NCBI GenBank assembly: GCA_040757115.1
Contig: JBFLYA010000238.1
Location: 1-5,718, forward strand
DNA length: 5,718 nucleotides
Reading direction: 5' to 3'
Source of the DNA: a bacterium
Lineage (GTDB): Bacteria; UBA9089; CG2-30-40-21; SBAY01
In this document: positions 1 through 5,718 of the stretch, piece by piece
Position numbering within the stretch: position 1 is the stretch's first letter
Layout of the letters: each line of letters opens with the position of its first letter
The notes under the pieces: generated by a model
Told to the model about the DNA's origin: nothing
The model's database searches: none
Seen by the model: the letters and a program-made list of their open reading frames with translations, nothing else
Translations under genes and position numbers: made by a program

Positions 1-124
1 TTTTCCACAATCAATTTCTACCTATTTCTATAAATTTCAATCTATTTCTATTATCTTATCTCCATATCACTCTTATCTCCTTATCCCCTTTCTTACACTT
101 TTGATATATAGCCTGAACGGTTAC
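1..124 (+). repeat. Left copy of 124-bp terminal inverted repeat
   Basis: Bases 1-124 are the reverse complement of 5595-5718 at 123 of 124 positions. The only difference is T71, where the partner G5648 would predict C. Identity ends abruptly after the inner sequence GCCTGAACGGTTAC: the left side continues GCCACA and the right side, read in reverse complement, continues CAATTT. The outer part has TTTC words spaced 10 bp apart (9-48) and the middle part has spaced CTTATC words, so the repeat is itself built from short periodic units. I see no open reading frame of note in it. It could be an end of a mobile element or one copy of a dispersed intergenic repeat. Confidence 0.95.
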
Positions 125-164: not shown

Positions 165-229
165 TGTAGTGCGAACCTTTAGGTTCGCTTTCCTGCTTGC
201 CAGAAGCGAGGCTAAAGTCTCGCACTACA
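165..229. repeat. 65-bp nested palindrome (two hairpins inside an outer stem)
   Basis: Arms 165-190 and 204-229 are complementary at 22 of 26 positions around a 13-nt centre; the outermost 10 bp (TGTAGTGCGA / TCGCACTACA) are perfect. Each arm is also a hairpin: GCGAACCT-TT-AGGTTCGC at 171-188 is perfect, and GCGAGGCT-AA-AGTCTCGC at 206-223 has one mismatch. The element can therefore fold as one long stem or as a short outer stem carrying two hairpins. This resembles REP/MITE-type palindromic repeats. No T-run follows, and it lies more than 190 bp before the first gene, so a terminator or attenuator role is not supported. Confidence 0.85.
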
Positions 230-2168: not shown

Positions 2169-2251
2169 TTTTATGCAAAAAACAATACTCCCTATGAAGA
2201 GCCAAAATGGTTAGCCTGGGATTACCGGCATTACAAAACGGCTTCTTGAGC

Positions 2252-2256
2252 AGAGG
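2252..2256 (+). promoter_or_regulatory. Ribosome binding site favouring the inner heparinase start
   Basis: AGAGG (followed by T) lies 7 nt before the ATG at 2264. The upstream in-frame ATG at 2207 has only a weak GAAGAG (2196-2201) in front of it. This supports starting the heparinase-like protein at 2264. Confidence 0.6.
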
Positions 2257-2263
2257 TTTTATA

Positions 2264-4420
2264 ATGTTCACCCTATTTTTTAAAATCAGGAAAATCTCGG
2301 TTAAAGAAATCTTATTCAGAACTAAAAAATTAATTGGACAAAGATTAGAAATATGGGGACATACCCCATATTTAAAGCGGGAATATGGGATGTGTCCCCA
2401 TATTCATCTTATAGAAAAAGATGAGATATTTAATACCTATTTGCCTCAAACAAGGTATATTCAGGAGGCAGATAAAATATGTGAACATAAGTTCGCATTA
2501 TTAGGTATAAATGTCGAGTATAAAGATACGATTGAATGGCATAAACATCCGCTAACCAAACAGGAGTATCCACTAAAATTATATTCAAACATCTATAAAT
2601 TCTTAAGCCATGGGGATGTAAAATATGTCTGGGAAATCAGCCGACATGAGCACTTTGTTTCCCTCGGATTAGCCTGGTGCCTGAGCGGGGATGAAAAATA
2701 TCGCCGGGAATTTTGTGCTCAGATAACTGATTGGATAGATTCTAACCCTTATTTACTTGGTGTCAATTGGTCGAGTGGTTTAGAGGTAGCGCTACGGGCA
2801 ATAAATTGGGTAATGGCTTATAACCTCTTCTTAACATCTATAGATGCAGAGGTCCATTATAAGATTTTAAATAGCCTTTACCAGCACGGAAGATACCTTA
2901 TCCGTAATCTGTCCTTTTTTTCAAGTCCGTATAACCATTTAATTGGAGAGGCAACGGCGCTTTTTATCTTAGGGTTTTTATTCCCGGGACTCAAAGAGGT
3001 AAATCAATGGAAAAAAACAGGCTGGCAAATACTTAAATCAGAACTTAAAAACCAGTTTTATGAAGATGGTGGCAATGTCGAACAGGCAGTATCCTATCAC
3101 CATTACACATTAGGGTTTTATCTACTGGCGATTATCCTTCAGATGAAAAATGATATTGAGGTTGAGCCAGAGATTCTAAAGGCTATTGAGCGAGTGATGG
3201 AATTTTCTATGTATCTAACAAAACCTGATAGTCGAATGCCAATGATTGGGGATGGGGATGGTGCTCGGTCAATTAAATTTGGTGTCGTAGATGACCATTG
3301 GGATTTTAGAACCTTTCTTTCAATCGGAGCAATTTTATTCAATCGTGGAGATTTTAAAAAGATAAGTGGTAAAATCAGTCAAGAGACAATATGGCTACTG
3401 GGTAGTGCTGGGCTAAAAAGATATGAGGCGATTTGCGAAAAAGCCGCAGAGCAAACCTCAATGGCGTTTTCTGCAAGTGGTTATTTTATTATGCGTAGTC
3501 ACTGGGACAAAGATGGGGATTATTTATGTTTTGATTGTGGCCAACAAGCCGCAGGACTTCATAAAGATGCAACACCATCCGTTGCCCATGGTCATGCTGA
3601 TGCCCTTTCTCTGGAACTTGTAGTTAATGGGCAACCACTCATTATTGACCCGGGGATGTATTCATATTTTGATGAGCACTTTCAAAATTACTTTCGAGCC
3701 ACACCCGCTCATAATACGATTGTAATTGACCGTAAGTCTCAAGCCACATTAGTCGGCAAACTTGGCTGGAGTAATACCTATTCCACAAAATGTCAGAAAT
3801 GGTTTACCTCTGAACTTGCCGATTATGTGGAGGGGGAACACGATGGCTATGCCCCGATTATCCATAAAAGAATAATCTTTTTTAATAAATTGACTAAATA
3901 CTGGCTTATTTTTGATTACTTAGACGGAAAAGAAAAACATCTGATTGAACAATATTTCCACTTTGCACCGACCGCGATGGAAGTTAACAAAGAATCAATT
4001 GTTACTCAACATGCTTTACTTATGCCAATTAATCCAGATTTAGTCAATCTTGAAGTCGAAGAAGGCTGGGTAGCTAAAAATTATGGGGTGAAAATTAAAG
4101 CCCCGGTGGTAAAATACTCCACAACATCAATATTACCCGCATCTCTGGGTGTGATAATCTATCCAACAGGGCTAAATCGTCCTAAGATAGAACAATTAAA
4201 TAAACGGGCGTTTAAATTAATTACCCCTCATTGGATAGACTATCATTTACTCAGTAGAGATTGTGAAGGGATTGAAACAGATGCGAGATTTAGCCACATC
4301 CGATTCGATAATAAAGGAGATATTAAAGGATTTACCATCATTCAAGGCTCATTTTTAATGATTAATCAAAAGGAAATTTTTAGAACGACTCAATTAACAG
4401 ATATGGTGAAAATATTATGA
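2264..4420 (+). CDS. Heparinase II/III family polysaccharide lyase-like protein
   Basis: The product is 718 residues from the preferred ATG at 2264 (737 from 2207; residue numbers here use 2207 as 1). An alpha-helical alginate-lyase-like domain carries VNWSSGLEVALRAINW (186-201), YNHLIGEA (242-249) and EDGGNVEQAVSYHHY (286-300). The C-terminal heparinase II/III beta-domain carries HGHADALSLEL (461-471), IIDPGMYSY (479-487) and RATPAHNTIVID (497-508). Asn243, Tyr297 and His461/His463 sit where heparinase III-type lyases have their catalytic Asn, Tyr and His, so an active uronate-cleaving enzyme is plausible. No signal peptide is evident with either start, which is notable for a lyase but common for members encoded in exopolysaccharide loci. 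The stop overlaps the glycosyltransferase start by 4 bp (ATGA), implying coupled translation and a shared glycan pathway. The 2264 start is chosen for its AGAGG site; the extra 19 residues from 2207 look unlike the family. A palindrome is embedded at residues 48-66. Confidence 0.9.
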   Translation: MFTLFFKIRKISVKEILFRTKKLIGQRLEIWGHTPYLKREYGMCPHIHLIEKDEIFNTYLPQTRYIQEADKICEHKFALLGINVEYKDTIEWHKHPLTKQEYPLKLYSNIYKFLSHGDVKYVWEISRHEHFVSLGLAWCLSGDEKYRREFCAQITDWIDSNPYLLGVNWSSGLEVALRAINWVMAYNLFLTSIDAEVHYKILNSLYQHGRYLIRNLSFFSSPYNHLIGEATALFILGFLFPGLKEVNQWKKTGWQILKSELKNQFYEDGGNVEQAVSYHHYTLGFYLLAIILQMKNDIEVEPEILKAIERVMEFSMYLTKPDSRMPMIGDGDGARSIKFGVVDDHWDFRTFLSIGAILFNRGDFKKISGKISQETIWLLGSAGLKRYEAICEKAAEQTSMAFSASGYFIMRSHWDKDGDYLCFDCGQQAAGLHKDATPSVAHGHADALSLELVVNGQPLIIDPGMYSYFDEHFQNYFRATPAHNTIVIDRKSQATLVGKLGWSNTYSTKCQKWFTSELADYVEGEHDGYAPIIHKRIIFFNKLTKYWLIFDYLDGKEKHLIEQYFHFAPTAMEVNKESIVTQHALLMPINPDLVNLEVEEGWVAKNYGVKIKAPVVKYSTTSILPASLGVIIYPTGLNRPKIEQLNKRAFKLITPHWIDYHLLSRDCEGIETDARFSHIRFDNKGDIKGFTIIQGSFLMINQKEIFRTTQLTDMVKIL
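2350..2404. repeat. 55-bp two-hairpin palindrome inside the heparinase gene
   Basis: AATATGGGGACA (2350-2361) pairs perfectly with TGTCCCCATATT (2393-2404). Pairing resumes after two mismatches as CCCATATT (2365-2372) against AATATGGG (2382-2389), around a 9-nt centre. Each half is also a hairpin: ATATGGGG-ACATA-CCCCATAT (2351-2371), and GAATATGGG with CCCATATTC (2381-2389 and 2397-2405). The element is read in frame as residues 48-66 (L-E-I-W-G-H-T-P through M-C-P-H) of the heparinase-like protein, close to its N-terminus. Its fold-back layout resembles that of the intergenic palindrome at 165-229, although the sequences differ. Confidence 0.85.
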
Positions 4421-5538
4421 TAACTACCATTTTATTCTTAATATCATTTATATGTCTTGGACACACTTACATCTTTTATCCGCTTATCCTCATACTATTA
4501 TCTCTGGTAGCCAAAAAGGGTGTAGTTAGAGATGAGAATTTTTTACCAGCAGTTAGTTTGTTAGTCGCGGCTTATAATGAGGAAAGGATAATCAGAGAAA
4601 AGGTAGAAAATTCACTTTCAATAGATTATCCAAAGGACAGATTAGAGATTATAATTGCCTCAGATGGTTCTACGGATAAAACTAACGAGATTGTGGCTGA
4701 GTATAAAGACATAATATTAAAAGAGTTACCTCGAGCCGGGAAGATAACCGCCGTAAATAAAACCCTCCCACAGGCTACTGGTGAAATTATAGTTTTATCG
4801 GATGCTAACACAATGTATGAAAAAGATGCCATAAAAAAGTTAATTCGTAATTTTAAAGATGAAACTGTAGGTGGGGTAACGGGTAAGGTCCTATTAATAA
4901 GTGAAAAAGCGACTTATGGCCAGGGAGAAAGTCTTTATGGTAAATATGAAAGATATATTCAGAAAAAAGAAAGTCAAATTTCTTCTATCATCGGCGTTGA
5001 TGGGGCAATGTATGCTATCCGTAAAAATCTATTTAAACTAATTCCTCCGGAAATAATTTTAGATGATTTAGTTAATGGAATGAACATTGTCAAACAAGGA
5101 TACCGCGTGATTTATGATGAGTCTGCCGTTGGTTATGAAGATACCGCCGCGAGTAGTAAAGGTGAATTTATCCGGCGGGTCAGGGTATCTGGAGGTGGAT
5201 TTCAGATGATAGTTAAAAATCAAGGTGTCCCGTCGATTAAACAGCCATTTTTCCTCTTCCAATTTATCTCTCATAAGTTATTTCGCTGGCTGACTCCATT
5301 TTCCCTCATTATCCTTTTTACAACTAATTTATTTTTAATAAATATAAATCTTTTTTATAAAATTTGTTTTGTTTGCCAGTCACTTTTTTATCTTCTGGCA
5401 TTGATGGGTGGATTCTTCAAATTAAAGGCATTGGGAACACCATTTTATTTTTGTCTAATTCAGCTGGCATCGCTTATCGGTGTTTATCGACTCATCACGG
5501 GTAAATTAAGGGTTACCTGGACCAAAGGGAGAGAATAA
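4417..5538 (+). CDS. Membrane-anchored family 2 glycosyltransferase
   Basis: This 373-residue protein is a GT-A fold inverting glycosyltransferase of the cellulose-synthase-like GT2 group. It would transfer a sugar from a nucleotide-sugar on the cytoplasmic face of the membrane; donor and acceptor cannot be read from sequence. An N-terminal hydrophobic segment (about 3-31) precedes the catalytic domain. Visible motifs are VAAYNEE (50-56), ASDGSTD (81-87), the metal-binding DxD-type SDANT (128-132), VDGAMYAIRK (194-203), the acidic pair in ILDDLVNG (214-221) and RRVRVSGGGFQ (253-263), which corresponds to the R/QxxRW-like acceptor loop. Two or three further hydrophobic segments follow at about 288-310, 312-332 and 337-358. 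The ATG overlaps the heparinase TGA, and a GGTGAA site lies about 7 nt upstream, so translation is probably coupled. The domain layout resembles exopolysaccharide-type synthases, and the protein looks full length. Confidence 0.92.
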   Translation: MITTILFLISFICLGHTYIFYPLILILLSLVAKKGVVRDENFLPAVSLLVAAYNEERIIREKVENSLSIDYPKDRLEIIIASDGSTDKTNEIVAEYKDIILKELPRAGKITAVNKTLPQATGEIIVLSDANTMYEKDAIKKLIRNFKDETVGGVTGKVLLISEKATYGQGESLYGKYERYIQKKESQISSIIGVDGAMYAIRKNLFKLIPPEIILDDLVNGMNIVKQGYRVIYDESAVGYEDTAASSKGEFIRRVRVSGGGFQMIVKNQGVPSIKQPFFLFQFISHKLFRWLTPFSLIILFTTNLFLININLFYKICFVCQSLFYLLALMGGFFKLKALGTPFYFCLIQLASLIGVYRLITGKLRVTWTKGRE

Positions 5539-5594: not shown

Positions 5595-5718
5595 GTAACC
5601 GTTCAGGCTATATATCAAAAGTGTAAGAAAGGGGATAAGGAGATAAGGGTGATATGGAGATAAGATAATAGAAATAGATTGAAATTTATAGAAATAGGTA
5701 GAAATTGATTGTGGAAAA
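5595..5718 (-). repeat. Right copy of 124-bp terminal inverted repeat
   Basis: This is the inverted partner of 1-124 with a single difference (G5648 opposite T71). It starts 56 bp after the glycosyltransferase stop with GTAACCGTTCAGGC and runs to the last base of the window. Near the outer end the word GAAAT recurs exactly every 10 bp (5671, 5681, 5691, 5701). The middle contains GATAAG at 5634, 5642 and 5659 and the variant GATATG at 5651, a spacing of 8-9 bp. No transposase is encoded nearby. Confidence 0.95.
5671..5710. repeat. Four 10-bp phased GAAAT units within the inverted repeat
   Basis: The units GAAATAGATT, GAAATTTATA, GAAATAGGTA and GAAATTGATT follow one another without gaps; the mirror copy is at 9-48. 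Spacing equals about one helical turn. The A-tracts are only three to four bases long, so strong DNA curvature is possible but not assured. Confidence 0.8.

What the first reader, a model, noticed from the sequence alone, without database searches (positions are those of the whole stretch)
2350..2404. Palindromic element embedded in frame in the N-terminus of the heparinase-like gene
A 55-bp sequence able to form one long stem or two hairpins lies inside the open reading frame without breaking it, encoding residues 48-66. This resembles the in-frame palindromic elements known from Rickettsia genes (RPE), where a mobile palindrome inserts into coding sequence and is tolerated near the protein surface. 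The encoded stretch is before the recognisable catalytic domains, where insertion would be tolerated. A regulatory mRNA structure is the main alternative.
Basis: partly seen in the sequence, partly recalled or inferred. Interest (0 to 1): 0.6.

Follow-up and report, generated by a model that had tools for sequence, protein, structure and literature searches.

The report
Mobile palindrome inserted inside heparinase gene
A 55-base double hairpin of a jumping-DNA family that normally sits between genes has landed inside a heparinase-type gene of an uncultured bacterium without breaking it, so 18 amino acids of the protein are written by the mobile element; this is a known kind of event seen here in a new lineage.

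Summary
Positions 2350-2404 hold two 23-nt imperfect palindromes, head to head, with a 9-nt spacer, in frame in a heparinase II/III gene. The fold is far beyond chance. Single 23-nt units recur at four other, intergenic loci of the same genome, and head-to-head doublets recur in five other genomes of the same order, about 30 times in one (G007). There, the doublets share a core (GGGGACAGCRCCC) with a repeat beside a REP-associated tyrosine transposase (RAYT) gene. In G007 another doublet sits in frame in DNA ligase LigA, 22 residues replacing 8, while seven relatives lack it. Many heparinase homologues carry an SxxEIxFR-type motif upstream of the palindrome, and none outside the genus carries the palindrome peptide. 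So the element is most likely translated and is foreign to the protein, in a segment of variable length. Best reading: a REPIN-like non-autonomous element, probably spread by RAYT, tolerated in frame with local loss of target DNA. In-frame REPs are published (PMC3733652), so this is a new member of a known kind. It has neither GTAG nor CGTC tag, so it is not an RPE-4/RPE-6-type element. An mRNA regulatory role is unsupported but not excluded.

The parts
2350..2404 (+). REPIN-like element: two inverted REP-like palindromes plus spacer, in frame, encoding (E)IWGHTPYLKREYGMCPHI
2350..2372 (-). left REP-like unit (reverse strand AATATGGGGTATGTCCCCATATT; core GGGGACA on the + strand)
2373..2381 (.). 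9-nt spacer TAAAGCGGG; the same 9-nt spacing is seen in G005:C16
2382..2404 (+). right REP-like unit AATATGGGATGTGTCCCCATATT; 22 of 23 identical to an intergenic unit at G000:C149:4589-4611
2297..2320 (+). codons of SVKEILFR, an SxxEIxFR-type motif shared by many homologues, upstream of the palindrome
2207..4420 (+). host gene: heparinase II/III family protein (Hepar_II_III_N and _C); likely start ATG 2264, longest ORF from ATG 2207

Best explanation
The 55 bp are a REPIN-like non-autonomous mobile element: two REP-like imperfect palindromes in inverted orientation around a short spacer. It belongs to a family dispersed through the genomes of this order, whose relatives flank RAYT (HUH/Y1, IS200/IS605-related) transposase genes. 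A copy was inserted, presumably by RAYT acting on single-stranded hairpin DNA, into the variable N-terminal segment of a heparinase II/III gene, with loss of local target sequence such that the frame stayed open. The gene is still under purifying selection and the element is now translated as 18 residues ahead of the catalytic domains. Shown: structure, recurrence of the units and doublets, RAYT linkage for sister subfamilies, absence of the peptide in homologues, purifying selection downstream. Inferred: RAYT mobilised this copy, deletion accompanied insertion, translation through the element, and tolerance of the peptide in a loop.
For: Units recur at C149, C98, C118 and C143 of the own genome, between genes. 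A covariance model of the doublet finds the window (E 1.6e-16), its same-genus orthologue, G002, G003, G005, G006 and about 30 places in G007 (the window and several hits were in the training set). A G007 RAYT-like gene (NF047646 67 bits, below its cut-off of 80) has CCGGGGACAGCGCCCG at its 5' flank; the G007 doublets have GGGGACAGCRCCC. A RAYT fragment in G007:C41 runs into a doublet, a RAYT fragment in G005:C24 adjoins an element, and a G001 RAYT is flanked on both sides by GGGGACA/TGTCCCC arrays. G007 LigA holds an in-frame doublet, 22 aa replacing 8 aa, absent in seven relatives. None of 18 homologues outside the genus carries the peptide, and many keep an SxxEIxFR-type motif upstream. dN/dS for the same-genus pair after the palindrome is 0.24.
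Against: No full doublet copy elsewhere in the own genome. The own-genome RAYT (C4) is flanked by a different repeat, with GGGGACA but CACAATACT after it, so the exact RAYT partner of this subtype is unknown. There is no close (>51% identical) homologue with an empty site, and no target duplication was seen. Between G000 and G001 the 84 nt before the palindrome have 3 replacement and 0 silent changes, too few to judge. A start at the ATG inside the palindrome (2387) cannot be wholly excluded.
Confidence: 0.78

Rival explanations
1. The palindrome is a regulatory mRNA structure native to this gene: a -33 kcal/mol hairpin about 85 nt after the start codon that pauses ribosomes or stabilises or attenuates the message.
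For: Very stable fold; identical in the same-genus orthologue; paper PMC3733652 argues that some REPs near 5' ends act as post-transcriptional controls.
Against: The same units are found between unrelated genes and a sister doublet in LigA; heparinase homologues lack it; zero changes in 55 nt at 2% divergence is expected about a third of the time; no Rfam match.
Confidence: 0.1
2. The palindrome lies upstream of the real start codon (for example ATG 2387 or a later start) and is a 5'-UTR REP, not coding.
For: PMC3733652 warns that many N-terminal REPs reflect misannotated starts; 3 replacement and 0 silent changes upstream.
Against: An open frame upstream with an SxxEIxFR-type motif shared by homologues in several phyla, aligned at the right place.
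Confidence: 0.1
3. Another kind of small palindromic element (a MITE derived from a DDE transposon, or a Rickettsia-type RPE) rather than a RAYT-linked REPIN.
For: All are short palindromes that can be found in genes; RPE insertions are also in frame (PMC3733652).
Against: RAYT genes and fragments adjoin members of the family, and no target-site duplication was seen; the CGTC tag of RPE-4/RPE-6 is absent.
Confidence: 0.12
4. Chance palindrome.
For: None beyond the symmetric amino-acid make-up of the peptide.
Against: z -6.6, 0 of 200 shuffles; recurring units and doublets with the control pattern nearly absent.
Confidence: 0.01

Closest known systems
REPINs and RAYTs (Bertels and Rainey 2011, PMC3116915; Nunvar et al. 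2010, PMC2817692)
   Same: Two inverted imperfect palindromes with a short spacer; singlets plus doublets; RAYT genes flanked by repeats of the same family; mostly extragenic.
   Different: No GTAG/GTGG tag; core GGGGACA; low copy number in the own genome (one doublet, four singlet loci); this copy is inside a gene.
Intragenic GTAG and CGTC REPs (PMC3733652)
   Same: In-frame units in genes, doublets encoding 20-30 residues, found in DNA repair genes including DNA ligase; N-terminal and C-terminal positions common.
   Different: Neither GTAG nor CGTC tag in the window element; an unnamed lineage.
Rickettsia palindromic elements (RPE)
   Same: In-frame palindromes that add residues to working proteins.
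   Different: CGTC tag of RPE-4/-6 absent; the kin here are linked to RAYT genes, an association that PMC3733652 (Table 1) reports for GTAG but not for CGTC repeats.

Membership tests
REPIN | two REP-like imperfect palindromes, inverted, with a short spacer | tested here: met
REPIN | dispersed family of doublets and singlets | tested here: met
   own genome: one doublet and four singlet loci; about 30 doublets in G007; doublets also in G002, G003, G005
REPIN | same repeat flanks a RAYT gene | tested here: inconclusive
   met for the G007 subfamily and, in the shared core only, for G000 and G001; no RAYT found flanked by the exact window subtype
REPIN | mostly extragenic | tested here: met
   the four other own-genome loci lie between ORFs; the window copy is the exception
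REPIN | mobilised by RAYT | not testable with these tools
   needs biochemistry
GTAG REP superfamily | GTAG/GTGG tag at one end | tested here: not met
   no such tag at the ends of the element
Rickettsia RPE-4/RPE-6 (CGTC superfamily) | CGTC tag | tested here: not met
   no CGTC in 2350-2404
Rickettsia RPE-1 | sequence similarity to RPE-1 | not tested
   no RPE sequences were compared
Heparinase II/III family (host protein) | Hepar_II_III_N and _C domains over cut-off | tested here: met
   143.2 and 135.1 bits against cut-offs 22 and 24

The most novel reading that the evidence does not exclude
The GGGGACA-cored repeats are a third REP superfamily beside GTAG and CGTC, and its doublets enter genes repeatedly in a preferred translatable register, spreading a small peptide module. 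The window (IWGHTPYLKREYGMCPHI) and a beta-helix protein in G005 (IQGHIPDFSGEYGMCPNP) carry the same register in unrelated proteins.
Probability: 0.12. Interest if true: 0.6.

Novelty: new member of a known kind. Interest (0 to 1): 0.36.

Why it matters
It gives a worked case, outside the well-studied bacteria, in which a hairpin element becomes protein sequence, with a sister case in DNA ligase that has a clear comparison with seven relatives lacking it. Both cases suggest that the element replaces rather than merely adds target sequence. The order offers a RAYT-linked family in which in-frame capture can be followed.

Tried and rejected
An exact search of the genome collection for the 19-nt core gave one match, in a Treponema MAG, inside a larger unrelated-looking palindrome; not followed. 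A strict pattern search of the own genome found only the window, so a degenerate pattern and models were needed. The strongest own-genome Y1 transposase (C205) and most other IS200-like genes had no such repeats at both ends. A paper found by the string GGGGACA used it only inside a PCR primer. Rfam gave nothing. Matches of the doublet model outside the order were not examined; long hairpins of other families can score with it, so no claim is made. No structure was predicted: the accepted inputs would have left the protein without an alignment. The best-matching solved structures align only from residue 119 or later, so they do not show the site of the palindrome.

Full report
WHAT IS THERE. 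The window is a whole contig (C238, 5718 bp) of a 4.3-Mb draft genome, called G000. It carries an AAA-type ATPase gene (429-2168), a heparinase II/III gene (to 4420) and a family-2 glycosyltransferase gene (4417-5538). In the heparinase gene, 2350-2404 reads AATATGGGGACATACCCCATATT-TAAAGCGGG-AATATGGGATGTGTCCCCATATT. The two 23-nt arms are 91% complementary to each other, and each is also an imperfect palindrome. The fold is -32.8 kcal/mol, z -6.6. The single long stem is favoured over two hairpins. Six randomised windows never came near 21 of 23 pairs.

IS IT TRANSLATED? The frame is open from upstream. The residues before the palindrome include KIRKISVKEILFR, which aligns with SVAEITFR, SPQEITFR, SRDELIFR, SSGEIVFR and the like in homologues from the same order and from other phyla. 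The local match to G007 was reached by 1 of 2000 shuffles and that to G004 by 53 of 2000; two more distant homologues showed no significant match. So translation most likely begins upstream (ATG 2264 or 2207). The caution is that the 84 nt before the palindrome differ from the same-genus orthologue at three replacement and no silent sites, too few to weigh. After the palindrome dN/dS is 0.24, so the gene is maintained.

IS IT FOREIGN TO THE PROTEIN? The same-genus orthologue (98% DNA identity over the gene) has it unchanged. None of 18 further homologues has the peptide. Between the SxxEIxFR-type motif and the next conserved block the homologues have 37-97 residues. The window has 50, of which 18 are the palindrome, while the two closest homologues (50-51% identical) have 78 and 85. 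So the element sits in a segment of variable length and stands where native sequence appears to have been lost. Since 55 is not a multiple of three, a plain precise insertion would have broken the frame.

DOES IT RECUR? A whole second copy is absent from the own genome. A degenerate 23-nt pattern found units at C149, C98, C118 and C143, while the reversed control pattern gave none in G000. A covariance model scored them at E 1e-7 to 2e-6, but they were in its training set, so this is not independent. They lie between ORFs. A doublet model found the window at E 1.6e-16, doublets in G002, G003 and G005, a weaker one in G006, and 29 places in G007 below 1e-11. The window and some G007 copies trained the model, but most G007 places did not. 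G005:C16 has the same 9-nt spacing as the window.

LINK TO A TRANSPOSASE. In G007 a RAYT-like gene at C182 (NF047646 67 bits against a cut-off of 80) has GGGGGAAAACCGGGGACAGCGCCCGTTTTTC just upstream, at the contig end. The G007 doublets read GGGAAAATGGGGACAGCRCCCTATTTTT. A RAYT fragment at G007:C41 runs into a doublet, and a RAYT fragment at G005:C24 adjoins an element close to the window subtype. A RAYT in G001:C398 has GGGGACA/TGTCCCC arrays on both sides; most other Y1 transposase genes of the order do not. No RAYT flanked by the exact window repeat was found, so the partner of this subtype is inferred.

A SISTER CASE. In G007 LigA (NF005932, 776 bits) a doublet is in frame: YTL-RKNGDSALFLEEKIGRCPHFSK-RLCSLEGWG where G005 has YTL-KDSFCRLE-RLCSLEGWG; seven relatives lack it. 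Again the element replaced target sequence (22 aa for 8 aa) and the frame was kept. In G005:C16 the doublet forms the C-terminal end of a beta-helix ORF, in the same register as the window. About half of the six frames of such an element are open, so a shared register in two cases is weak evidence of anything.

HOW IT WORKS. Most likely a REPIN-like element, moved as a hairpin by RAYT, entered the gene; among such events only those that left the frame open and struck a tolerant segment survive. Mobilisation and tolerance are inferred. Published work reports in-frame GTAG and CGTC REPs, more than half of them doublets or groups encoding 20-30 residues, in many proteins including DNA ligase (PMC3733652). 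So the kind of event is known. The repeat itself has neither tag and was not found named in the papers searched.

VERDICT. New member of a known kind, interest modest.

Noticed in passing
window 1-124 and 5595-5718: The contig ends are a 124-nt inverted repeat (99%); the same sequence occurs in G000:C14 next to a transposase fragment and in G001:C73, so it is a dispersed repeat at which the assembly broke.
   Followed up: partly
window 165-229: A second palindrome (TGTAGTGCGAACC...TCTCGCACTACA) upstream of the ATPase gene; a similar kind of repeat (GTAGTGAGGGTCTTTAGACCC) flanks a Y1 transposase at G000:C7.
   Followed up: no
L067, L073, L078, L080 near 1501-1700: Several single palindromes lie beside sequences that look like integron attC sites (CCTAACAAATTGTTGCAGCGGACGGCGGGGG).
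   Followed up: no
L070, L086, L088 around 1501-1610: In G005 and G007 the palindrome is joined to a repeat of about 70 bp holding a consensus-like promoter (TTGACT, then TATAAT) pointing outward, before different genes.
   Followed up: partly
L097 1131-2000: A G001 RAYT gene is flanked by tandem arrays holding GGGGACA on one side and TGTCCCC on the other.
   Followed up: partly
L162 1196-1819 (G007:C16): A doublet interrupts a nucleotidyltransferase-like ORF after PFDILLFTKD and leaves the frame open; whether the protein is intact is unclear.
   Followed up: no
window 2187-2197 against G001: An 11-bp length difference between the two same-genus genomes lies just upstream of the heparinase gene.
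   Followed up: no
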